Assembly: GCA_009664345.1 (NCBI GenBank)
Contig: CP043547.1
Coordinates: 4,368,709 to 4,432,708 of the forward strand
DNA: 64,000 nucleotides
From: Planctomycetales bacterium 10988
GTDB taxonomy: Bacteria; Planctomycetota; Planctomycetia; Pirellulales; Pb10988
Reading direction: 5' to 3'
The number at the start of each line of letters is the position of its first letter. Position 1 is the stretch's first letter. Positions 2,453 through 57,114 of the stretch are shown piece by piece. Position numbers and translations under genes: made by a program. Below the pieces are notes generated by a model, which was not told the origin of the DNA, made no database searches, and worked only from the letters and a program-made list of their open reading frames with translations.

Positions 2453-2696
2453 CACATCTCATGATAAAAGAGGAAAAGAAGAGGACTATTCGCACTTCCC
2501 ACGGCTTCAAAATTTTTCCGACGGAAGCGCAATTCCTCAAAATCCATACATTCTAGCATTCCAGCGACAATATTTTAACGAACATCCAAAAGAAACCAGC
2601 TTGCCCTGTTTTTAATAGATAAGTTCTGACGATTTCAATAGCTGCAAGGATCGGATGAATTGCCGACCCTCTGCAAATCAACTTTAATATTTCTAC

Positions 2697-2866
2697 TTTA
2701 AAGATTGACGGGAAGAGGAGTGCAAAGCTCCCGCCGCCCCGCGACTGTAAGGGGGACGAAGACCAACGCCCACTGGCCAGCAGAGGAGTATTCAGATAGC
2801 TGAACTCCAAGCAGGCTGGGAAGGGGGTCCGAGAACGAACCCGAGCCAGGAGACCGAATCTTTAAA
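2697..2866 (+). promoter_or_regulatory. cobalamin (AdoCbl) riboswitch
   Basis: The RNA shows class hallmarks in order. A closing stem P1 is formed by TTTAAAGATT (2697-2706) and AATCTTTAAA (2857-2866). The core GCCCCGCGACTGTAA lies near 2733-2747, a CCACTGG element follows, and the B12 box GAGCCAGGAGACC lies near 2843-2855. It sits 39 bases upstream of a BtuB-like receptor gene. Between the aptamer and the ATG, CTTTCC and GGAAAG can pair and would mask the Shine-Dalgarno sequence, which fits translational control. In this family cobalamin binding lowers expression of the uptake gene. Confidence 0.93.
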
Positions 2867-2904
2867 GAGGTCCCACTTTCCCCGAGGGAAGGAAAGAGGC
2901 AACG

Positions 2905-4824
2905 ATGCGTATGCACGGATGGAAAGGGCTCACACTCGGAGTCCTCATGGGGACGGTCTGTCTCGGCCAAACCCCGCCCGGTTTTATCAACGAGACCCCG
3001 CCACAGATGCTGGAGCCCACCGAAGTCCTCGGCCAGCAGCAAACGCGGCAGTCGACAACCACCTCGCAAGACGATCCTCCCCCCTTCCCGCAAACGGGAC
3101 TGGACGACCAAACCGTCGTCACGCCGACGCGGAATGAAGAGAACTATGGCCAAGTTGCCAGCTCGGTCACGGTGATTACCCGGGAGCAAATCGAACGCAG
3201 CCGGCAAACGAGCCTAGCAGAAGTTCTCCGCGGGGTGCCCGGTGTCGATGTCGTCCGCACCGGCGGCGAAGGTCGTTCAACTTCGGTTTTCATGCGAGGA
3301 GCGGAATCCGATCAAGTCCGCGTCCTGCTCGATGGCGTGCCTATTAATAATGCCCTCGATGGCCGTTTCGATTTCGATGTCTTCACCACAGACAATATCG
3401 AACGGGTGGAAGTTCTCCGCGGCCCGCAAAGTACGCTCTATGGATCGAGTGCCATCGGCGGCGTCATCAACGTCATCACGCGACGTGGCGAAGGACCGGC
3501 AACCGGAAAAGTACTTTTTGAAGCTGGCTCGTTCGGCACGGTTCGCGAAGCCGCCGGCATCCAAGGCGGAACGGACCTTTATTATTATTCAATGACCGCA
3601 TCGTTCTTCGACCAGGACGGTTTTTCCGCCGCCAGCAACAATGATGAGCGGGATGCGTATCAAAATCACACCTACTCCGGCCGCATGGGCGTGACGCCTA
3701 CGGAAGACTTCGACCTTGATTTTTCCTTCCGTTATACCGATGCCGGTGCCGAGTTCGATCCCTTCGGCAGCGTGGAAGGGGTAAACCTCATCGACCGCAC
3801 CTACCTGCGGACGCAAGCCCGGTGGGAACCGCTGGAAAACGTTGAAACACTCGTCACCTTTGCCTATAACGATAACTATGTGCTCGATCCTTCCGCCTTC
3901 GGACCGTCCGAGTTTGCCGGTGAAGAAGTCCGCTTCGAGTGGCAAAACAACATCCGCCCCATCGACGGCCACACGATCACCTTCGGGGTAGATGTCTTTG
4001 AAGAGCGGGCTGGCAGCACCTTTCAGGAGCGAACGCAACGCGATACCACCGGCTGGTATGTGCAAGATCAAATCGAGTACGGCCGTTTCTTCGCGACCAT
4101 CGGCGGCCGTTGGGACGACATCTCCGGCGTTGATTTGGCAAGCACTTATCGCGGAGCGGCAGGCGTTCGCATCGAAGAAACCGGAACAACGTTTCGCGGG
4201 AGTATCGGGACCGGCTTCCGTGCCCCGTCCTTCGTCGATCTTTTCTTTCCTGGTTTCGGCAATCCCGATCTCCTGCCGGAGACGAGCAAAGGTTGGGACT
4301 ACGGAGTGGAGCAAAGGCTCTGTGATGGGCAACTTGTCCTGGGAGCGACTTACTTCCGGAACGATTTTCAAAACCTGATCGTTTCCGGATTTCCCACCTT
4401 CATCCCGTTTAATGTCGGTCGAGCTCTGGCAACCGGGGTAGAAACGAGTGCCTTGATTCTGCTCGATTCAAAGACCCGGCTGCGAGTCTTTTATACCCAT
4501 ACCGACACCCGCGATCGTGACACGATGGCCCCGCTGGTCCGCCGACCTCGCGACAAGGTTAGTATCTTCCTTACGCGATCAATGCTGAATAATCGGGCCG
4601 ATGCCAACATCGGAGTTCGCTTTGTTGGCAATCGCGAAGATGTCGGTCGCGTCGCCCTTGCCCCTTATACGGTCGTCGATTTCTCCGGTACGTATGAGAT
4701 CAATGATTACTGGCGAGTCTTCGTGCGGGTCGATAATGTCTTCGATGAAAAGTATGAAGAGGCCGACGGATTCAACACTCCGCGTGCCTCCGCCTACGGC
4801 GGGGTAATCCTCGGCGGCTGGTAA
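2905..4824 (+). CDS. btuB: TonB-dependent outer-membrane receptor, vitamin B12 (BtuB-like)
   Basis: 639 residues. A signal peptide (hydrophobic stretch to about residue 22, ending at VCLGQ) is followed by a linker, a TonB-box-like segment (TVVTPTRNEE), and a plug domain with SSVTVITREQIE, LAEVLRGVPGV and VEVLRGPQSTLYGSSAIGG. A 22-strand-type barrel follows with the conserved late motif GTGFRAPSF. The closing segment RVDNVFDEKYEEADGF matches BtuB-like barrel ends. Such receptors bring cobalamins across the outer membrane using TonB energy. The upstream cobalamin riboswitch is the strongest evidence for the substrate. The Shine-Dalgarno GGAAAGAGG lies 5-6 bases before the ATG. No btuCDF genes lie in the window. 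Confidence 0.9.
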   Translation: MRMHGWKGLTLGVLMGTVCLGQTPPGFINETPPQMLEPTEVLGQQQTRQSTTTSQDDPPPFPQTGLDDQTVVTPTRNEENYGQVASSVTVITREQIERSRQTSLAEVLRGVPGVDVVRTGGEGRSTSVFMRGAESDQVRVLLDGVPINNALDGRFDFDVFTTDNIERVEVLRGPQSTLYGSSAIGGVINVITRRGEGPATGKVLFEAGSFGTVREAAGIQGGTDLYYYSMTASFFDQDGFSAASNNDERDAYQNHTYSGRMGVTPTEDFDLDFSFRYTDAGAEFDPFGSVEGVNLIDRTYLRTQARWEPLENVETLVTFAYNDNYVLDPSAFGPSEFAGEEVRFEWQNNIRPIDGHTITFGVDVFEERAGSTFQERTQRDTTGWYVQDQIEYGRFFATIGGRWDDISGVDLASTYRGAAGVRIEETGTTFRGSIGTGFRAPSFVDLFFPGFGNPDLLPETSKGWDYGVEQRLCDGQLVLGATYFRNDFQNLIVSGFPTFIPFNVGRALATGVETSALILLDSKTRLRVFYTHTDTRDRDTMAPLVRRPRDKVSIFLTRSMLNNRADANIGVRFVGNREDVGRVALAPYTVVDFSGTYEINDYWRVFVRVDNVFDEKYEEADGFNTPRASAYGGVILGGW

Positions 4825-6418: not shown

Positions 6419-6535
6419 GTTAGGTTTCAGGTTTCAACCAAAATATATTCCTAAAAGTGTTTTTTTGAATTATTATCAAAAAGTACTTTTATCTTATTTC
6501 TCTCGCCCCTCATCCCTTGCCCTTCGCCCCTCTCT
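6419..6535. repeat. degenerate MITE-like element, copy E6
   Basis: Starts with two copies of the 7-mer of copy E4 (GGTTTCAGGTTTCA). It then has AAAAGTGTTTTTTTG at 6453-6467 and AAAAAGTACTTTT at 6478-6490, the two-palindrome arrangement of the other copies. The right side is a different iterated sequence (CGCCCCTCATCCCTTGCCC). It overlaps the 3' end of the portal gene, whose last residues (GREGRRARDEGREK) are encoded by this repetitive stretch. Confidence 0.55.
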
Positions 6536-7936
6536 CCCCATATTCCTCGCTTCTTGCTCAGGATCGAGGCCAGCCTGAAGCTGCCACGTGCTCCGAGAAA
6601 GCACACCATGCTCGGCTTTGATGGCATTCGCTCGGGCCTCTTCAAACTGATCGCGAACGATGAGCGATGGCGGCTCGATTTGAAAGTGCAACCGCTGCCA
6701 AGTATCGTGCGGCAAGCGACCGGCCTCCGCCGCACGTTGCAATAGCCTCAAGAAAACCGAACGATCATCGCGAATCAACGTTTGCTGCAAACGCTGAAAC
6801 ATCTTCACGGCCGGGCCTTCCGCGACCAAGGTGCTGGCATAATTGGAATTGGAAGCATCCGCGGTGAGCATGAACTCCGGCATGACCAAACGGCTGGCGA
6901 CCGCTCGAAGTTCCGCTTGCAGAATCGCAATCAACCGACTTGCATCGAGGCCCAGTGTCGGGAACTGATAGTCAATCCCAGCCGGGGCATCCAAGATCGT
7001 GCCGGGTTCCAAATGCCGATAACGACGGCTGAAATCCGCCGCACTGCTGGGAGTTTTGAGATTCGCTTGCCGATCGGCGAACTGGCGAATCGCCTGGGCT
7101 GAACTTTGCTCATGCTTGCGAATGACCGCAATCGCTGCCTGCGTTTGAGCCAAGACCGACATATTTCGCATCAACTTTTCAATGCGACGCAAGTTGGAAA
7201 GGACCGGATAAAAGGTCGGTAAGCCCCGTTTGGTATTGCGATCGACATTCGCTTTTCGATGCTGAATCGAATTGGCGGCGACGAATTCCTCATCAATATA
7301 ATAGCCTTGCACCTGCTCGACATCGTTCGGTTCCGTCACGATACCCCAAGTGGAAGCCGCATCTTGAGATCGATCGGTCGGTTGCCGAATCAATTCCGGT
7401 TCCACGAATCGAACGGCGAGAAACCCCTCTGCCTCCGAAACCGGGAAAAACCGCAAAAACACCTCGCCATCGCGGTCCATCCGCCGGACGATTTCCTGCT
7501 GCCGTTGATTCCACTGCTGATGATGCAAAAAATCTTCCACGACTTGCTCGGCGGCTCGGGCAAGCTCCACTTCCTCAGCATCGCGTGGACTAAAACCATA
7601 GCGATGCCCGGAACCGACCAAGTAATTGATCCGGTTTTCTTGCCCGCTCAAGGCGAATTCATTGTGCATCAAAAGCTCGCGACAGGCCGATCGCACGAGG
7701 TCCAACTCGGCCTCGCTTCGCAGACATGCACCATGGCGATGATCTCCAGAGACCGTCAACCAAGGCATTCCGTCGTCATCCCAAGCGGCCTCTCTAGGAT
7801 CAACGGCCTGTTCGGAGAGCGACTGATGACTTTCCAGAAGCTGTTGTCTTATTTGCACTTCCGCTAATTCCAGGCGAACCTGCTCCTCCGCCAGCCGCTC
7901 GCGAAGTTCTTCTAAAGAATCCGTCGTACAGCTCAT
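6494..7936 (-). CDS. phage portal protein (lambda-type)
   Basis: 480 residues related to lambda-family portal proteins, which form the dodecameric ring at the capsid vertex through which DNA is pumped. Supporting segments are the N-terminal coiled-coil-like helix, CRELLMHNEFALSGQENRIN, the clip/stem region VEQVQGYYIDEEFVAANSIQ, and the crown-type segment KRGLPTFYPVLSNLRRIEKL followed by AQTQAAIAVIRKH. The start ATG overlaps the stop of the upstream small gene (ATGA), so the two are translationally coupled. The final 14 residues are low complexity and lie inside a repeat element, so the C-terminus may be altered. No capsid, protease or terminase gene lies next to it, and the terminase genes are about 48 kb away on the same strand. 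Confidence 0.82.
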   Translation of the reverse strand: MSCTTDSLEELRERLAEEQVRLELAEVQIRQQLLESHQSLSEQAVDPREAAWDDDGMPWLTVSGDHRHGACLRSEAELDLVRSACRELLMHNEFALSGQENRINYLVGSGHRYGFSPRDAEEVELARAAEQVVEDFLHHQQWNQRQQEIVRRMDRDGEVFLRFFPVSEAEGFLAVRFVEPELIRQPTDRSQDAASTWGIVTEPNDVEQVQGYYIDEEFVAANSIQHRKANVDRNTKRGLPTFYPVLSNLRRIEKLMRNMSVLAQTQAAIAVIRKHEQSSAQAIRQFADRQANLKTPSSAADFSRRYRHLEPGTILDAPAGIDYQFPTLGLDASRLIAILQAELRAVASRLVMPEFMLTADASNSNYASTLVAEGPAVKMFQRLQQTLIRDDRSVFLRLLQRAAEAGRLPHDTWQRLHFQIEPPSLIVRDQFEEARANAIKAEHGVLSRSTWQLQAGLDPEQEARNMGREGRRARDEGREK

Positions 7937-44130: not shown

Positions 44131-44722
44131 AACGGGTTCCTTCAGTCAATTCCGCACAAATTTCAATGTTCTGTTGCCCAACGAGGGAGGATTCCAACAC
44201 GTTGGCGTTTTTTAGAGTTTGTGGTCAAAAGTAAATTGGGAGCCGCCATTTCCAGGCGTTTGCCCGCTTCTAACTGGTTTTAACCACTGGCTCTTAGTGT
44301 ATGGACAAAACTTACAAGCAAAGCTCTTCTATCGAGATTTACCGGGATTCATCAAGTTTTGACCATTGGCTCTAAGCTCACAATCCGCTCACTCTTTTTG
44401 CAATCCACCTTTGGCAATGTAGAATTTGCCCGGCTTCCCATCAAGGCCCCCTCGCAATATCCACGAGGCCCCACCCCGTTTTTTTGTGAAACTCCGGACA
44501 ATTGCCCCCTAATTGGTTTCGCCAAGACTCATCTCAGTTGGACGAATCACCCTCAGTCTTTGTACCCTTATGTTATTGGCCTGCTTCCACCTGATACCAA
44601 GAACGATGCAAAGCTCTGGCGAATCTCCCAATAAAAAACCAGACATCCTTCAAAATAAAACTAACACGCAAAATCCACAGGGTACTCTCATGAAAGGATC
44701 ATTTCAAAGAGAGGAGTATTTT
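44131..44722. other. 592-bp gap upstream of the paralog array
   Basis: Two related direct repeats of the form TTTTRACCAYTGGCTCTWAG lie near 44277 and 44355. A frame open from 44513 extends into the first paralog, but it has no ribosome-binding site or signal peptide of its own. Probably holds the promoter for the four-gene array. No other gene seen. Confidence 0.4.
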
Positions 44723-45484
44723 ATGACATATCTCTACCGACTTCTATGTGTAGGTGTCTTCGTAGTAACACTTTTTCTCAACAACCGTGCTTCCGCGAAT
44801 AACAATTTTTTTCTTCCCGGCGACGCCTATTTCCCCACAGTTCTAACAGAAGAAACGATAAGACAGCTGAGTATCTCTCAAATGATCAAGTATCAGCCTA
44901 TGGGATATGACTTTGCCTTTTGTGGCTATGCCGGATATAGCAAGTGTCATATAGCTGGCCTAGACGAAATCTTAATAGAAAATCTAAGGCAGGCATATAA
45001 GCTCCTTAATGAAGGAGAGAGACAACTCTATACAAGAGACCCTGATAGTCAAGAAATAATTAGCTTAGATAATCTATTTCCGATGTTAATATATCCCGAT
45101 GATTTCGATGCTACGAAGTTTAAGCTCGCGCTCCGCTATAATGAAACCTGGATGGCTGAGACAGAGAAATTTGGTCACAAAAATGGAGGAAGGCTTTGTT
45201 GTTTAATAGATGACAAAGACGCGGTGATGGAGTCGTGGAGGGATGCAGCTCGAGTCCCACCGTTGGAAGCAACTCTTCCCAAAACCGATCCAGAATTAGG
45301 AAAGCTTATTAATGAGCCAATTAGGATCACAGGTCCAGTTCAGTTTATAATTGTCCATCGTTCGCTCGAAAACTACTTTCGACCGTCAATGAAAAATTTG
45401 TCCTTTATAATAGTGAATACCAAAGAAATCATTAAGTATACTTACAAAGAAGAAAAGTGGATTGTGACTCAAAAAATTAAATAG
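44723..45484 (+). CDS. secreted hypothetical protein, tandem paralog 1 of 4
   Basis: 253 residues from ATG 44723, chosen because GAGAGGAG lies 6 bases upstream and a signal peptide starts there (to about residue 24, ending RASA). The mature start NNNFFLPGDAYFPTVL is shared by all four neighbours. Further shared blocks are GYAGY, LRYNETWMAETEKFGH, RLCCLIDDKDAVMESWRDAA, PPLEATLPK, a GPVQFIIV strand and a C-terminal YKEEKW. The gene is AT-rich. I recognise no family. Likely periplasmic or extracellular; an array grown by duplication. Confidence 0.75.
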   Translation: MTYLYRLLCVGVFVVTLFLNNRASANNNFFLPGDAYFPTVLTEETIRQLSISQMIKYQPMGYDFAFCGYAGYSKCHIAGLDEILIENLRQAYKLLNEGERQLYTRDPDSQEIISLDNLFPMLIYPDDFDATKFKLALRYNETWMAETEKFGHKNGGRLCCLIDDKDAVMESWRDAARVPPLEATLPKTDPELGKLINEPIRITGPVQFIIVHRSLENYFRPSMKNLSFIIVNTKEIIKYTYKEEKWIVTQKIK

Positions 45485-45559
45485 TAAAAAGCTTTAGACC
45501 GGTGTCTGAAGAATGTTCTTGATCGAACTTACTCCGTCAACATTACAAAGGAGTGAAAA

Positions 45560-46363
45560 TTGAACCAGCATCCCTGTTTCTTCTATCTTTTTCTACTTTC
45601 GATGCTTCTTTGCAAAGCTGGAATTGCAGCAGACACACTCTTTTTACCTGGTGATGCCTATTTCCCAACATGGCTAACGAAAGATGATCTCGTTCGTCTG
45701 AAGACTACCCAAACAATCAAGTATTCCCATCCAGAAGGTAACGATGCAATCGCTCCTAAAACAGCCGGTTATACGCACGCGAAACTTGAAGGGCTAAATC
45801 ACAGCTTTCTTACAAACTTGATAGAAGCGTTTAATGAATATCGCTCGACTGGCACTTACAATATTATTGAAGACCTTGAAAGTGGTAAAATGATGTTTAT
45901 GCAACCAGGAGAAGGTCTTCATATTCTCTTTTACTCGAAGACCTTTAATTTTCGGAAATATAGATTAGGTCTTCGGTACAACGAAAATTGGATAGCTGAA
46001 ACAGCAAAATTTAATTCTGATGCAGAGAAGATTAAACTAACCGAGTTAGTAGATAATGGTATGGCAGTGATGGAATCTTGGCGAGACGCGACTCGTGTTC
46101 CAGCACTTCCAGTTAAAATTCCTGAAATTACGAATAGGACACAAAATCCTGTTGATTTCCCAGTTTTAATCACAGGCCCACTTCAAGCCATCATTCTTCA
46201 AGACTCCTTGATAGATTATTATGACTTGAAAGAAGAAAACTATTTATCCTTAGTCATTGTTGATGCAACAGAAGTCAAAGAGTTCTCCTACGAGGAGTAC
46301 CAATGGAAAGTGTCTTCTTCGGACTCTGAAGAGGGCCTAAGACGCTTGGTAGAAGATATCTGA
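45560..46363 (+). CDS. secreted hypothetical protein, tandem paralog 2 of 4
   Basis: 267 residues starting at TTG, with AAAGGAG 7 bases upstream. A signal peptide to about residue 23 (GIAA) is followed by DTLFLPGDAYFPTWL. Same block order as its neighbours (LRYNENWIAETAKF, MAVMESWRDATRVPAL, GPLQAIIL, YEEYQW). It lacks the CC pair: CCLIDDKDAV of the others reads TELVDNGMAV. That makes it the most divergent copy. The tail is longer and acidic (SDSEEGLRRLVEDI). Confidence 0.74.
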   Translation: MNQHPCFFYLFLLSMLLCKAGIAADTLFLPGDAYFPTWLTKDDLVRLKTTQTIKYSHPEGNDAIAPKTAGYTHAKLEGLNHSFLTNLIEAFNEYRSTGTYNIIEDLESGKMMFMQPGEGLHILFYSKTFNFRKYRLGLRYNENWIAETAKFNSDAEKIKLTELVDNGMAVMESWRDATRVPALPVKIPEITNRTQNPVDFPVLITGPLQAIILQDSLIDYYDLKEENYLSLVIVDATEVKEFSYEEYQWKVSSSDSEEGLRRLVEDI

Positions 46364-46430
46364 TTTATCTACAAGTATCCTCAAGCAACTCACGCTGTAG
46401 ATAGGTTTTCGTTTCACCGCCTTATGAAGA

Positions 46431-47225
46431 TTGAACATTATGAATCAACTTTTAATTATTCTATCATTAAGTACAGTTGCGTTTAGTATTCTATTGTATG
46501 AAAAGACGTATGCGGCGGATAATTTTTTTCTACCGGGGGATGCTTTCTTTCCCACTCGGTTAACCTTGGAAAGTCTCGATCAACTAGCGAAAACGAAAAC
46601 CATTCAGTACGCCTCTCCCATTGGTTCTGAATATGGAAAAAGTGGCGACGCCGGATATGCCTATGCCTACCTTCCTGATCTTGATGAAGAATTTGTTCTA
46701 AACATGAAAGGGTACTTTAAATGGCATGTATCAACTGGTTGGAAAGACTTTATTGAAGACCCCAAAAGTGGAAAGAAAGTACCACTAGAAACAGATGGTG
46801 CAAGCGTACTCGTTTATCCGAGCGATTTCGATCCTTTAAAGTTTTGGCCCGGGCTTCGCTACAATGAACATTGGAGGACGGAAACGGTAAAATTCGGGCA
46901 TGACCACAATCAAATCAACCCTTGTTGTTCTATCAACCACAAAGATGCCTTGATGGAATCTTGGCGTGATGCCACCAAGGTTCCCCCTCTTCAAGTAATC
47001 TTGCCAAAGACACAACCTAAACCCAAGCAAGTTATTGAAGAACCTATTGTCATTAAAGGTCCGTATCAAATCTTGATCATTCAACAACCAATGATCGAAC
47101 TCTTTCTCGCAGAAGAAGATATCATAAGTTATGCGGGCTTTTGGTCAGACATCACTAGAGACTACCATTTCTCAAACAACGAATGGGACTTTTTCGAACA
47201 CGAAGCAAGCTATCATCGTGACTAA
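46431..47225 (+). CDS. secreted hypothetical protein, tandem paralog 3 of 4
   Basis: 264 residues from TTG 46431, or 261 from ATG 46440. The TTG aligns with that of paralog 2. A signal peptide (ending TYAA) is followed by DNFFLPGDAFFPTRL. It shares GYAYAYL, LRYNEHWRTETVKFGH, INPCCSINHKDALMESWRDA, PPLQVILPK and GPYQILII. Ends with a short basic/acid tail. Spacing to neighbours is 45-70 bases, so one transcript is likely. Confidence 0.74.
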   Translation: MNIMNQLLIILSLSTVAFSILLYEKTYAADNFFLPGDAFFPTRLTLESLDQLAKTKTIQYASPIGSEYGKSGDAGYAYAYLPDLDEEFVLNMKGYFKWHVSTGWKDFIEDPKSGKKVPLETDGASVLVYPSDFDPLKFWPGLRYNEHWRTETVKFGHDHNQINPCCSINHKDALMESWRDATKVPPLQVILPKTQPKPKQVIEEPIVIKGPYQILIIQQPMIELFLAEEDIISYAGFWSDITRDYHFSNNEWDFFEHEASYHRD

Positions 47226-47268
47226 CTTGCTGTATAAATAAAAGCAAGAATATGAAAGGCCAGATGAA

Positions 47269-48042
47269 GTGAAAATCTTTTTCTATCAAGTGTCAGCATT
47301 TGTAGTATCATTAATACTCTTTAACCCTCCTACTTTTGCGGCGGATAATTTTTTTCTGCCGGGGGATGCCTATTTTCCTACAGAGTTGACCGAGGGGGAT
47401 TTTGAAGCGTTGGGCGATTCCAAACTGATTACCTACTCATCTTTAGGTGGTTACAAGCCTTCCTTTAATGGGTATGCCGGGTATGGAATGGCGAAACTTG
47501 AAAGTCTCGATGATGATTTTCTTACAAATCTTAAAAGAGCTTATCAACACTATCGATCGATTGGCCCCAGGGAAGCGATTCAACGACACATGAATGGAAA
47601 GCTGACACTTGTTCCTTCGGATTCGTTGCGTGTTCTCATCTATCCTAAAGGTTTTATTGAAACTACACCTAGCCTTGGAATTCGCTACAACGAACGGTGG
47701 ATGACCGAGGTGATGAAGTTTGGGCATCCCCCTGAAAATGTTCGGCTTTGTTGTTTGATTGATGACAAAGATGCGGTGATCGACTCGTGGCGAAATGCGG
47801 AGAGAATTCCCCCGCTTCCGGCAACCCTGCCGAAGGGAAAGCTTGAACCGCAAACGATGTTGAAGGAACCAATCCTTATCCAAGGCCCGATCGTTGCGAT
47901 TGTCCTTCACCCTTTCCCATCCTTGGAAGATTTTTTTTATCCTATCAAAGACAATTTAAACATTATCATCGTTGATTCAGAAAGTGCCAAAGAGTTTCAA
48001 TTCGATTTCTACAAACTTAAGTTGGTTCAAGAGTTGGAATAA
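47269..48042 (+). CDS. secreted hypothetical protein, tandem paralog 4 of 4
   Basis: 257 residues starting at GTG, with AAAGG upstream. A signal peptide (to about residue 24, TFAA) is followed by DNFFLPGDAYFPTEL. It has the GYAGY, LRYNERWMTEVMKFGH-like block (here IRYNERWMTEVMKFGH), RLCCLIDDKDAVIDSWRNAE and PPLPATLPK blocks. Its second half is more GC-rich than that of the others. It ends about 117 bases before the IS5-type insertion. Confidence 0.75.
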   Translation: MKIFFYQVSAFVVSLILFNPPTFAADNFFLPGDAYFPTELTEGDFEALGDSKLITYSSLGGYKPSFNGYAGYGMAKLESLDDDFLTNLKRAYQHYRSIGPREAIQRHMNGKLTLVPSDSLRVLIYPKGFIETTPSLGIRYNERWMTEVMKFGHPPENVRLCCLIDDKDAVIDSWRNAERIPPLPATLPKGKLEPQTMLKEPILIQGPIVAIVLHPFPSLEDFFYPIKDNLNIIIVDSESAKEFQFDFYKLKLVQELE

Positions 48043-48159
48043 ATCGTTCCTTCAGCCTTTTCTCTTTCCGCAAACATCGAATTACAACCATTCCTAAGAC
48101 GGCAGCTTAATCCATTCAAGAAATCTTTTTGCAAATGGAGTTAATGGCAATTCCGATAA

Positions 48160-49067
48160 GAGCGTGTTTGCGAATTCCCAAAGTTTCCCTTTTTTAAGGA
48201 CACAGACGTTTGAGCATTAAGTGAATCATGCTGATTTGTATCATCGCTTCACTGGTGGAAGGTTCCCGTTCATCATCCTTGCTCAACCGGCGGCTGCGAC
48301 CCAGCCAACCGAAGGTTCGCTCGACGATCCACCGCTTCGGCAACACCTCAAAACCGCCTCGGCCTGACACGCGTTTGACGATTTCCAGTGTCCAGTGGAA
48401 GGTATTTCTCACCCACGCCGGCAGCCCGCTGCGAGCGTAGGCACCGTCCGCGAAAATCACCCGAAGCCGAGGAACGTCTCGCTTCGCTTTTTGCAACACT
48501 AAGCGGGATCCCTCCTGATCCTGAAGGTCCGCCGAATGCACCACGATCGCCAGGACCAAACCCAGCGTATCGACGAGTAAATGTCGTTTTCTCTCGTTGA
48601 TTTTCTTGCCGGCGTCGTACCCACGAGGCCCGCCCGCCTCGGTGGTTTTGACCGATTGACTGTCGAGAATCGCCGCCGAGGGCTTCGCGGATCGCTTCTC
48701 TTTTGTTCGTATTTTCGCTCGAAGTTTACGGTGAATTTTCTCCCACCCGCCGAGATTTCGCCACGCCCAAAACAGGTGGTAAACCGAATTCCAGTTGGGA
48801 AAATCATGCGGCAACAACCGCCACGGACAACCCGCTCGCAGGACGTAGAAAATCGCGTTGACCACTTCGAGGGAATCGAGCTGCCGCTTCGCTCCGACCT
48901 TCGCCGGTGGCGGCAGCAGGGGACGAATCAAACGCCATTGACGATCGCTGAGGTCGGTGTAATCGTGAGGTCGTGACATCGGTGCGGCTCCTTGGTTATG
49001 GTTTTGTGGTGAATTCACAAGGGGTCGTACCGATTTTTTTGTCAAATGTCAATTCGCAAACACGCTC
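48160..49067. mobile_element. IS5-family insertion sequence
   Basis: 908 bp. The terminal inverted repeats are GAGCGTGTTTGCGAATT (48160-48176) and its exact complement AATTCGCAAACACGCTC (49051-49067). The target duplication TAA is found at 48157-48159 and 49068-49070, as expected of TNA-duplicating IS5 groups. It carries one transposase gene on the minus strand. Removing it rejoins a small open reading frame, so it is a recent insertion. Confidence 0.93.
48194..48979 (-). CDS. IS5-family transposase
   Basis: 261 residues from ATG 48979 (MSRPHDYTDLSDRQWRLI). DDE catalytic residues: D106 in ILDSQSVKTTE, D178 in VIFADGAYARSG, E220 in WIVERTFGWLGRSRRL. GPRGYDAGKKINERKRHLLV is the family signature. 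Full length and intact, so the element is probably active. The frame is open 22 codons upstream, but those lie near the left-end region and are not typical. Confidence 0.95.
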   Translation of the reverse strand: MSRPHDYTDLSDRQWRLIRPLLPPPAKVGAKRQLDSLEVVNAIFYVLRAGCPWRLLPHDFPNWNSVYHLFWAWRNLGGWEKIHRKLRAKIRTKEKRSAKPSAAILDSQSVKTTEAGGPRGYDAGKKINERKRHLLVDTLGLVLAIVVHSADLQDQEGSRLVLQKAKRDVPRLRVIFADGAYARSGLPAWVRNTFHWTLEIVKRVSGRGGFEVLPKRWIVERTFGWLGRSRRLSKDDEREPSTSEAMIQISMIHLMLKRLCP

Positions 49068-49319
49068 TAAGTACAACCTTAGAAAGAGATTGGCGCGAAC
49101 ATCAGAATGAGGAAGATTCTATTATTTTGATATCAAAAAAATTAGACTTCCTCTATCATTGTGGGATATCAATACAATCACCTCCTACAATACGTAAAGA
49201 TGTGATCGCTTGTTCACTTGCGAAAGAATTGTTTTTCGAAAGTCACGGCGATAAAATAGCGAGTTTTCGGTTGTATTGTTTCGCCGAAAAGTTTGATGAC
49301 TCTTTTGGATCGATAAAGA

Positions 49320-50855
49320 ATGATGCTGGATCGAAATTTTAGAAAATCGTTGGCTTTTCTGACAACGGTTTTACTCTTTACTTTTAGTGGTTCGAGCTTT
49401 AGTCATGCGGCGGAGGAAACAAGCTCCGAGCAGCCCAATATTCTTTGGCTCTATCTGGAAGATGTAAGCGGCTGGTTCGGTTGCTATGGGGATGAGTTGG
49501 CACAAACTCCGGCGATGGATCGATTGGCAGAAAGTGGAATAAAATTTAATCGTTTTTATACACCTGCTGGCGTTTGTTCTGCTACACGTTCCGCAGTCAT
49601 TACCGGAGTCATGCAAACAACGATTGGTGCCCATAATCACCGTAGCTCACGAAGTGAATTTCGTGGGTTGGATTTAAAAGAGTATGATGCCATTTATTTA
49701 CCCGAAGGCATGAAGCCGATTCCACAAATCTTTAAAGAAGCAGGATACTATACCTTTAATGAAGGTGGAGTGAAGGACGACTTTAATTTTGTTTGGAAAC
49801 ATAAAGACCTTTATGATCACTGGGAAAAAAGTTTAAATTTTAAAGGTGCCAAAGATGGAACTGAATGGACAGGGAAAGCGGAAGGGCAACCTTTCTTTGG
49901 ACAAATTCAGATCCAAGGTGGAAAGTTTAAATTAAATAATTGGAAACATCAACGGATTGATCGTAGCATCGTACCGATTCCCCCTTATTATCCTGATATT
50001 CCTTTGGTTCGGGAAGAAATTGGACATCATTACGATTGTTTATATGAAACCGATCTCCAAGTGAAAGCGATTTTAGAAGCTTTACAACGAGACGATTTGT
50101 TAGAAAATACTTACATCTTTTTATTTTCCGATCATGGTTATCGAATGCACCGTCATAAACAATTTTTATATGAAGGTGGAATTCAAATGCCTTTTATTTT
50201 AACCGGGCCAACGATTGATGCGGGGAAGGTTCGAGATGATTTAATAAGTGGAATTGACCTTGGTCCTACTTCTTTAAACTTGGCAGGCATTGAAATCCCT
50301 GACTACTGTGAAGGGGTTGATATACTTGCTAAAAATTATGAACCTCGCGAGTTCATCGTTGCGGCTCGTGATCGTTGCGATCATACAATTGAACAGATGC
50401 GAGCGCTAGTTACAAAGCGTTTTAAATATTTACGCAATGGATTACTTGATCGCCCTTATATGCAACCTCAATATCGAGATGGTCTTGCGGTGACAAAACA
50501 AATTCGCAAGATGGCCCGCGATGGAGAATTAAATAAAGTTCAAATGTTGTTTTATGGAGATCATAAACCGGAAGAAGAACTTTATGATTTAGAGGCCGAT
50601 CCACATGAAATAAATAACCTGGCAGGCGACCCTGCTTACGCGGATGAATTAGAAAAACACCGCGAGTTGCTTGATCAATGGATTGAAGAGACAGGCGACA
50701 AAGGGCAAGAGCCCGAATCCGACGCTGGACTGCTGGCGACGATGAAACGTCGAGGTGGCAATGTTTGTGTCAATCCGGAATACGATCGTGTCCGAGATCA
50801 GTACGAAGCTTGGTTGAAAGAAAATCCCAAAGAATTGAAACGCCAAAATCGTTAA
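49320..50855 (+). CDS. sulfatase
   Basis: 511 residues, with a signal peptide (to about residue 30, SFSHA). The catalytic signature C86-S-A-T-R90 (CxAxR, matured to formylglycine by FGE) lies in AGVCSATRSAVITG. The metal-binding start is NILWLYLEDVSGWFG, and SDHGYRMHRHK carries the second metal/His region. GVDIL and ELYDLEADPHEINNLAGDP match the arylsulfatase C-terminus. Such enzymes remove sulfate from sulfated polysaccharides, and many copies are typical of Planctomycetota. The gene is AT-rich to about 50650, then GC-rich. Its maturation enzyme is not in the window. Confidence 0.92.
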   Translation: MMLDRNFRKSLAFLTTVLLFTFSGSSFSHAAEETSSEQPNILWLYLEDVSGWFGCYGDELAQTPAMDRLAESGIKFNRFYTPAGVCSATRSAVITGVMQTTIGAHNHRSSRSEFRGLDLKEYDAIYLPEGMKPIPQIFKEAGYYTFNEGGVKDDFNFVWKHKDLYDHWEKSLNFKGAKDGTEWTGKAEGQPFFGQIQIQGGKFKLNNWKHQRIDRSIVPIPPYYPDIPLVREEIGHHYDCLYETDLQVKAILEALQRDDLLENTYIFLFSDHGYRMHRHKQFLYEGGIQMPFILTGPTIDAGKVRDDLISGIDLGPTSLNLAGIEIPDYCEGVDILAKNYEPREFIVAARDRCDHTIEQMRALVTKRFKYLRNGLLDRPYMQPQYRDGLAVTKQIRKMARDGELNKVQMLFYGDHKPEEELYDLEADPHEINNLAGDPAYADELEKHRELLDQWIEETGDKGQEPESDAGLLATMKRRGGNVCVNPEYDRVRDQYEAWLKENPKELKRQNR

Positions 50856-55482: not shown

Positions 55483-55498
55483 AAAAAGTGCTTTTTAG
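55483..55498. repeat. AAAAAGTGCTTTTT palindrome at the fabF-like/TerL junction
   Basis: AAAAAGTGCTTTTTAG. It overlaps the TerL stop codon and lies 14 bases after the convergent ketosynthase stop. The same motif recurs at most junctions to 63.4 kb and in the repeat elements. Confidence 0.7.
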
Positions 55499-57114
55499 AT
55501 AAGTGGAAGACGTTCGCATCCCTGCAAGGGATCATGAGGCGGTTCCTCCGATCCCAAGAGATGATGTGCCAGTCGCAAGGCCATTTCTAAGGCATCCGGC
55601 CCATCGTCATGGCTCTGAGGATCGGGAAAATCACGGAGTTGGGAAACAAGCAATCGCATGCCTGGCGTCCGTCGAAATCGCAACTTACGCTGTGCAAGCC
55701 ACGGACTGAGCGTGCGAATGCGTACAATCTTTGGACTTCGATTCTCGATCAAATAGGGGACAAGCGGAATTCCCTCCTCGTGAAAAACTCGTTCGAACTC
55801 GTTGCCAAGCAGTTCTTGATAATGATTACTTTCCACCCCGAACGCTTGCGGCTGAAAACTGCGACAAAGAGCAACGCCATCGGCGATCATCTGCTCCGTC
55901 GGACGACGAGCCAAGTCGGCATCCAGATAGCAAAGGCCATCCTTTCCGATCGCGATCGAGGCATAGGCCGAGTAGTCTCCACGGCGAGAATCTCGCCCTT
56001 TGCTCGGATCGAGCGCGATGACTTTGGTGTGTAGCTCACTTGGGTAAGCGTCAAACCAAAGAGAATCCTCGAAGTAATCTTCCGGCCATTCGCAGGCCTC
56101 CACATCGACGGACACCCCTTGCTTTTCCCTCAAAAAAACGCGATGCCCTTCGTTCTCCCGCATCAGCATCAACGTATAGAGGTCCTCTTCCTCCGGCCAG
56201 AGCAACTCCGCTCCCTCGTGCAAAGCTTCGGCATGTCGCTCGTAAAACAGCCGTGCGTCCGCAGCCGAATCCTCCCGCTTGAGGTCCTGGTAAATCTCCG
56301 CCCACCGCTGCCAAAGGTCCATCCTTGCTGGCCACTGTTCGATCGCGGCAAACTTCCGCGAGGTCCAACCGGCATGCTCCAACAGCCGCATGGCGATTGC
56401 TTCCCGATGCAACGCGGTAGCCACATGGATGACGTTGGACCGCTTCGTACCGGCCTTCAGCAGCGACCCATTGAACCAATCCCAATCTTTTTCGCGTAGT
56501 TTGCTCGAGAAGATGACCTGGTCCGATTGAAGATCATCGCAGATCATCAGACTCGGACGATGGGCTCCTTGCCGCCGTCCCCGCAGCTTTTGCCCACTAC
56601 CGTAAGCTTCCAGGACCGCCCCGTTTTTGAGGATCAACCGCCCAGCCCGCCAAACCGTTCCCCGCCCGCAAGCCTGGGGATAAGACCGAGCCAAGGCCCG
56701 ATTTTCGGTCAGCTCATGCCGGATGTTTTCCAGATGATTACAGGCTTGATCACGCGTTTCGGAGAGAATCCAGATTAGCGGCTCCCTGCCTTCGACCGCG
56801 CATCGTAGCGGAAAGGCAAGGCTGCCGATCGTCGACTTCGCTCCGCCTCGTGGAGCGATCACATTCAACTTTTTCCCGCGATTTTCAAGAAGCAGATCAA
56901 GCTGAGTACCGAACCAACGATGCATCTTCGACGGTGCCTGACACACATGCTGCGGAAGATAGGTCCGTGACCATTCGAGCAGCGGAGGCGATTGATTGGC
57001 AGGATTTGACTGCGTGGCGGATTCGAAGACCTCATGCATGAAGTGGGCAAAGGCTCGAATCCATCGACGTTCCTGAGGACCGTCTACCTGAGAAAAAAAG
57101 AAAGGTCGCTTCAT
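55495..57114 (-). CDS. phage terminase large subunit
   Basis: 539 residues. Walker A APRGGAKST (87-95), Walker B SLMICDDLQ (188-196), then a C-terminal RNase H-like nuclease with IALDPSKGRDSRRGDYSAY (D369) and FGVESNHYQELL and SHDDGPDALEMAL (D503/D507). This is the motor that pumps and cuts DNA during capsid filling. The start ATG lies 9 bases after the TerS stop, so both form a packaging pair. Portal, capsid and tail genes are not adjacent. The only portal in the window is at 6494-7936. Confidence 0.93.
   Translation of the reverse strand: MKRPFFFSQVDGPQERRWIRAFAHFMHEVFESATQSNPANQSPPLLEWSRTYLPQHVCQAPSKMHRWFGTQLDLLLENRGKKLNVIAPRGGAKSTIGSLAFPLRCAVEGREPLIWILSETRDQACNHLENIRHELTENRALARSYPQACGRGTVWRAGRLILKNGAVLEAYGSGQKLRGRRQGAHRPSLMICDDLQSDQVIFSSKLREKDWDWFNGSLLKAGTKRSNVIHVATALHREAIAMRLLEHAGWTSRKFAAIEQWPARMDLWQRWAEIYQDLKREDSAADARLFYERHAEALHEGAELLWPEEEDLYTLMLMRENEGHRVFLREKQGVSVDVEACEWPEDYFEDSLWFDAYPSELHTKVIALDPSKGRDSRRGDYSAYASIAIGKDGLCYLDADLARRPTEQMIADGVALCRSFQPQAFGVESNHYQELLGNEFERVFHEEGIPLVPYLIENRSPKIVRIRTLSPWLAQRKLRFRRTPGMRLLVSQLRDFPDPQSHDDGPDALEMALRLAHHLLGSEEPPHDPLQGCERLPLI

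What the first reader, a model, noticed from the sequence alone, without database searches (positions are those of the whole stretch)
44723..48042. Four tandem secreted paralogs of an unrecognised family
The proteins of 253, 267, 264 and 257 residues each start with a signal peptide and a near-identical mature N-terminus (FFLPGDAYFPTxLT). They share LRYNExWxxExxKFGH, CCLIDDKDAVMESWRDA and GPxQxII blocks. Paralog 2 has lost the CC pair. The array is AT-rich relative to neighbours and uses TTG/GTG starts. A secreted set of diverged copies with a conserved mature start looks like surface-exposed or antigenic-type diversification, or a family of toxin or matrix proteins.
Basis: seen in the sequence. 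Interest (0 to 1): 0.72.

Follow-up and report, generated by a model that had tools for sequence, protein, structure and literature searches.

The report
Four diverged copies, unnamed exported protein
A planctomycete bacterium carries four side-by-side, long-diverged copies of a small exported protein from an unnamed family that is scattered through its bacterial class; the family is real and its predicted fold matches nothing solved, but nothing supports the idea that the copies are shape-shifting surface antigens or toxins.

Summary
Four tandem + strand genes (44723-48042) encode homologous proteins (35-43% identity, E 1e-47 to 1e-64), each with a signal-peptide-like N-terminus followed by a near-invariant mature start, N[ND]xFLPGDA[YF]F. 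Two corrections: genes 1 and (probably) 3 start with ATG, and the low-GC tract runs on into the downstream sulfatase. The family matches nothing in Pfam, NCBIfam, PHROGs, PADLOC or PDB sequences. It is not strain-specific: matches occur in 22 other genomes of 397 sampled in the order (a few weak), 41 of 397 in the class, and three Verrucomicrobiales, usually one copy, with no conserved neighbour. Two AlphaFold models of distant members (pTM 0.81 each) give the same element order and no PDB match. The four copies form one clade (97/89), so they arose by old tandem duplication; synonymous sites are saturated. Copies 2-4 lost a cysteine kept by 37 of 43 members, and all four lost an E-x-N pair. 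Best reading: a soluble exported ligand-binding or enzymatic protein, amplified and diverged in one lineage, with copy 1 closest to the family norm. Antigenic variation and toxin readings lack support. The biochemical activity remains inferred only.

The parts
44723..45484 (+). Copy 1 (253 aa), ATG start; keeps C67 and 23 of the 26 positions conserved in the rest of the family; first branch in the clade of four
45560..46363 (+). Copy 2 (267 aa), TTG start; no cysteine in the mature protein; 18 of 26 conserved positions kept
46440..47225 (+). Copy 3 (261 aa from ATG 46440; 264 aa from TTG 46431); C67 lost; 21 of 26 kept
47269..48042 (+). Copy 4 (257 aa), GTG start; C67 lost; 18 of 26 kept
48159..49068 (-). 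IS4/IS5-group insertion sequence just downstream of the array: 18-bp inverted-repeat ends, transposase 48194-49045; seven other full-length copies (92-99% identical) in the genome. A neighbour, not part of the family
49320..50855 (+). Sulfatase gene sharing the low-GC tract; not shown to be functionally linked

Best explanation
The array is an old, lineage-specific tandem expansion of an otherwise mostly single-copy family of Sec-exported, soluble (periplasmic or extracellular) proteins, found in my searches only in Planctomycetia and a few Verrucomicrobiales. Each protein is a compact alpha/beta domain whose mature N-terminus is part of the core. The near-invariant set PGDAxF (32-37), Y57, G71 and NExW (140-143), with W172, most likely forms one binding or catalytic site for an envelope or extracellular ligand such as a glycan or other small molecule. 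Copy 1 keeps most family-wide residues; copies 2-4 have lost C67 and further positions and are probably sub- or neofunctionalised. SHOWN: homology, tandem arrangement, single clade, family distribution, conservation pattern, motif losses, consistent confident fold prediction. INFERRED: export (from sequence), solubility, co-transcription (gaps of 43-76 bases), that the invariant residues form one site, and any ligand or enzyme role.
For: Homology and order of copies. No model in Pfam, NCBIfam, PHROGs, PADLOC or PDB sequences. Relatives in the order, class and Verrucomicrobiales, only these four in the own genome. One clade, support 97/89, copy 1 branching first. Across 43 members N140, E141, W143 and G71 are invariant; F30, P32, G33, D34 and F37 are in all but at most one; Y57 in 41; C67 in 37. 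Nearest single-copy relatives keep 23-24 of 26 conserved positions, copies 2-4 keep 18-21. Two AlphaFold models of members only 23-30% identical give mean pLDDT 85-86 and pTM 0.81 with the same order of elements. No lipobox or anchor seen, so a soluble protein is the simplest reading.
Against: No coordinates were at hand to show that the invariant residues lie together, so the shared site is a guess from conservation; they could be structural. No functional neighbour, domain fusion or literature record gives a ligand or reaction. The fold search is empty, so no function can be borrowed. Losing a 37-of-43 cysteine in three copies could also mean decay rather than new function.
Confidence: 0.45

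Rival explanations
1. Structural component of the cell wall, stalk, surface pits or extracellular matrix of planctomycetes, present in several isoforms.
For: Found only in Planctomycetia and some Verrucomicrobia, groups with unusual envelopes; exported; no catalytic family matched.
Against: Only about a tenth of the class genomes sampled have it, so it is no core envelope part; no repeats or low complexity; invariant polar residues (D34, N140, E141) suit a site more than a building block.
Confidence: 0.2
2. Copies 2-4 are decaying duplicates with little function, and only copy 1 does the family's job.
For: Copies 2-4 lost C67 and other conserved positions; copies 2 and 3 have longer branches than copy 1.
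Against: All four reading frames are intact after synonymous saturation, the signal peptide is kept, and PGDA and NExW remain in all four; genes under no constraint would have broken by then.
Confidence: 0.12
3. Surface-exposed, antigenic- or phage-receptor-type diversification: the copies are alternative surface faces kept diverse by selection.
For: Four diverged copies in tandem, exported, in a low-GC tract next to an insertion element.
Against: No anchor or lipobox; nucleotide identity about 50% with saturated synonymous sites and no window of recent exchange; dN (0.58-0.69) below dS where dS can be computed; relatives mostly single copy.
Confidence: 0.06
4. Secreted toxins or effectors used against other cells.
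For: Exported small proteins in diverged copies, unknown fold.
Against: No match to toxin, immunity or defence models in Pfam or PADLOC; no recurring partner gene next to family members outside close relatives.
Confidence: 0.05
5. On origin, compatible with the best explanation: the whole low-GC tract (array plus sulfatase) was acquired horizontally as a unit.
For: GC3 0.33-0.43 against 0.46-0.66 for other window genes, while family members elsewhere differ from their neighbours by only 0.05 on average.
Against: The copies group with other planctomycetes and no donor was seen; composition alone is weak evidence.
Confidence: 0.3

Closest known systems
Unnamed single-copy relatives in Pirellulales and Planctomycetales genomes (e.g. 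loci L030, L005, L028, L032, L029)
   Same: Signal peptide, FLPGDA[FY]F mature start, CG[YF]AG[YF], E-x-N, YNExW, and for L032 the same predicted order of elements
   Different: One copy per genome as a rule (two unlinked in several Gimesia-like genomes), C67 and E-x-N kept, different gene neighbours
Relatives in Verrucomicrobium sp. BvORR034 and BvORR106 and a Verrucomicrobiales MAG (L038-L040)
   Same: Same mature start and FNEDW block, signal peptide
   Different: Long separate branch (100/100), insertion in the C-terminal half, shorter middle
CagD of Helicobacter pylori (PDB 3cwy, 3cwx)
   Same: Appears in the second-look structure lists of both models
   Different: Z 2.4-2.9, rmsd 4.0-5.4 over 85-92 residues, 4-8% identity; far below any level that shows kinship
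Planctomycete-specific surface export signal family (Pfam PF07595, Studholme et al. 2004, as described in PMC8567305)
   Same: Planctomycete exported proteins
   Different: These proteins carry an ordinary Sec-type signal and no PF07595 match

Membership tests
Unnamed 'PGDA-NExW' exported family (defined here from 43 members) | Profile match over the whole domain | tested here: met
   Profile from relatives and copies finds all four at E 1e-77 to 1e-84; a profile of the four finds relatives across the class
Unnamed 'PGDA-NExW' exported family (defined here from 43 members) | Signal peptide with Ala -1 followed by FLPGDA[FY]F, and invariant NExW | tested here: met
   (by sequence; no signal-peptide program at hand)
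Unnamed 'PGDA-NExW' exported family (defined here from 43 members) | Near-universal (not defining) C67 and E115-x-N117 | tested here: not met
   C67 kept only in copy 1; E-x-N lost or changed in all four. Absent in some other members too, so membership rests on the profile match and invariant blocks
Any named protein family | Score above curated cut-off in Pfam or NCBIfam | tested here: not met
   No credible family for any of 28 members; PHROGs and PADLOC also without credible matches
Antigenically variable surface protein families | Surface anchor (lipobox, beta-barrel or sorting signal) | tested here: not met
   No Cys at +1 after the cleavage site and no C-terminal anchor seen in the sequences
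Antigenically variable surface protein families | Recent recombination or gene conversion among copies | tested here: not met
   Nucleotide identity about 0.5, synonymous sites saturated, no long near-identical block
Antigenically variable surface protein families | Varying array content or expression between strains | not testable with these tools
   No second genome of the species, genus or family is held
Secreted polymorphic toxin or toxin-immunity systems | Toxin domain and adjacent immunity gene | tested here: not met
   No toxin domain match; no recurring adjacent gene except within near relatives
CagD fold | Shared fold | tested here: inconclusive
   Z 2.4-2.9 in a second look at Foldseek's own list
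PF07595 planctomycete surface export signal | Match to the PF07595 model at the N-terminus | tested here: not met
   Pfam scan of 28 members lists none

The most novel reading that the evidence does not exclude
The family is a new enzyme or binding-protein superfamily with a fold not represented among solved structures, specific to the planctomycete-verrucomicrobial envelope, and this genome shows a natural series in which one copy keeps the ancestral site while three neighbours have evolved new specificities after losing a near-universal cysteine.
Probability: 0.15. Interest if true: 0.65.

Novelty: new member of a known kind. Interest (0 to 1): 0.36.

Why it matters
Planctomycetes are full of exported proteins without names. 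Here is one family that is clearly real, has a confident model without a solved counterpart, a short list of invariant residues to mutate, and a natural four-copy series with graded loss of conserved positions. It deserves a family model in the databases and one structure. It does not open a long-standing question by itself, since lineage-restricted exported families of unknown function are common in these bacteria.

Tried and rejected
Named families: four libraries and PDB sequences, nothing credible; scattered weak hits (Collar 0.08, Translin 0.012, AbiEi 0.016) each touched one member and were dismissed. Fold: two models against PDB by Foldseek, best E 0.43 and 0.16 with TM about 0.1; second look Z at most 3.4; BFVD best E 0.68. 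This does not prove a new fold: AlphaFold DB was not available. Viral contigs: no relative. Plasmids: none with copy 1. Glycoside hydrolase clan A idea from the 'NE' pair (own knowledge): rejected, since the domain is small and the element order of the model is no TIM barrel. Disulfide C67-C159: not supported as a rule, because C159 occurs in only 20 of 43 while C67 occurs in 37, one member (L070) has C67 as its only mature cysteine, and copies 3 and 4 keep CC without C67. Link with sulfatases: a sulfatase-like cluster is present at 9 of the 38 loci compared; not tested against background, and judged unremarkable because sulfatase genes are abundant in these genomes (own knowledge). Synteny: recurring neighbours occur within related groups only. 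Literature: motif strings found in no paper.

Full report
CHECK. They are homologs beyond doubt: pairwise blastp E 1.5e-47 to 2e-64, 35-43% identity. Gene gaps are 75, 76 (to ATG 46440) and 43 bases, all on the + strand, so one transcript is plausible. A weak terminator-like hairpin lies at 45492-45511, but such sites are no commoner here than in shuffled sequence. Gene 1 begins with ATG behind AGAGAGGAG, gene 2 with TTG behind AAAGGAG, gene 3 probably with ATG at 46440, gene 4 with GTG. The tract has GC 0.39-0.43 in a window of 0.51; the sulfatase downstream is equally AT-rich, and a GC-rich insertion element sits between them.

FAMILY. No Pfam or NCBIfam model credibly scores any of the four or any of 28 relatives; PHROGs, PADLOC and PDB sequences are also empty of credible matches. 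Yet the family is widespread. With the four-copy profile, 23 of 397 genomes sampled from the same order match at E <= 0.1, the weakest few doubtful; with a 28-sequence profile 42 of 398 genomes in the class match at E <= 0.001. Both counts include the window's own genome and are samples, not censuses. The phylum draw gave hits only within this class. The scan of 84,980 species added three Verrucomicrobiales. The own genome holds just these four and is the only genome held for its taxonomic family. Other genomes have one copy as a rule; several related genomes of one other family have two unlinked ones.

EVOLUTION. In a careful maximum-likelihood tree of 35 members the four copies form one clade (bootstrap 97, SH-aLRT 89), copy 1 branching first (99/94 for the other three), inside a seven-member group (100/97) with single-copy planctomycete relatives (a quick tree of 43 members agrees). 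Tandem duplication inside this lineage is therefore the simplest history. It is old: nucleotide identity 0.49-0.53, synonymous distances saturated or above 1.5, nonsynonymous 0.58-0.69. No block suggests recent exchange; the highest local similarity (0.78-0.79) falls on the protein-conserved blocks.

ANATOMY. Ala at position 25 of copy 1, the likely -1 residue of signal peptidase cleavage, is kept in 40 of 43 members. N140, E141, W143 and G71 are invariant; F30, P32, G33, D34 and F37 nearly so; Y57 in 41, C67 in 37, E115 in 37, N117 in 39, W172 in 36, W246 in 39 of 43. Of 26 positions conserved in at least 80% of the other members, copy 1 keeps 23, copy 3 keeps 21, copies 2 and 4 keep 18, whereas the nearest single-copy relatives L030, L005 and L028 keep 23-24. 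Copies 2-4 all lost C67, and the intact E-x-N pair is gone from all four.

FOLD. AlphaFold models of copy 1 (pLDDT 86.3, pTM 0.81) and of the Rubripirellula relative L032 (85.5, 0.81), each with 19 aligned sequences, show the same order of strands and helices. The mature N-terminus is modelled with high confidence (block 31-40 has pLDDT 93 in copy 1), so it seems to belong to the core. PDB searches return nothing, nor does BFVD. That is consistent with a fold lacking a solved example, not proof of it.

CONTEXT. Among the 38 loci compared (counting the window), genes that recur beside the family gene do so only within related groups; the wider recurring clusters are sulfatases and other large paralogous sets. 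Nothing in the neighbourhood names a pathway.

MECHANISM. Committed reading: a soluble exported binding or catalytic protein with its site built around PGDA, Y57 and NExW; four diverged isoforms here. I put this broad role at 0.45 and a structural envelope or matrix part at 0.2. Antigenic variation and toxin readings get about 0.05 each. Which ligand or reaction is unknown.

NOVELTY. The family has no name in the libraries searched, but unnamed lineage-restricted exported families are a familiar kind of thing, so it is filed as a new member of a known kind.

VERDICT. Real, unnamed, lineage-restricted exported family, with an unusual four-copy array; ordinary in kind. Interest 0.36.

Noticed in passing
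window 48159-49068: IS4/IS5-group element with 18-bp inverted-repeat ends; seven further full copies at 92-99% identity plus one copy split in two by about 1.5 kb (G000:C1:1721242-1723695), so it has probably been active recently.
   Followed up: yes
window 48043-49330: The IS appears to interrupt a short open frame of roughly 100 codons (right part STTLERDWREHQNEEDSIILISKKL...); no Pfam match above cut-off. Possibly a small gene broken by the insertion.
   Followed up: partly
window 44513-44722: An open frame runs upstream of and in frame with copy 1 for 70 codons, beginning with a lipoprotein-signal-like stretch (TLMLLACF). Chance or a remnant; the ATG at 44723 is the family start.
   Followed up: partly
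window 2686-2876: Cobalamin riboswitch (Rfam RF00174, 81.5 bits) just upstream of a TonB-dependent receptor gene (2905-4824), presumably a B12 transporter.
   Followed up: partly
window 6494-7936: ORF matching the lambda-type phage portal family (PF05136, E 3e-20); surrounding genes not examined for a prophage remnant.
   Followed up: no
window 55495-57114: 539-aa ORF on the - strand with no Pfam match at E 1e-5.
   Followed up: no
L007 1423-2265: The family member in genome G071 has one in-frame TAA in the middle: an interrupted copy or a sequencing error.
   Followed up: no
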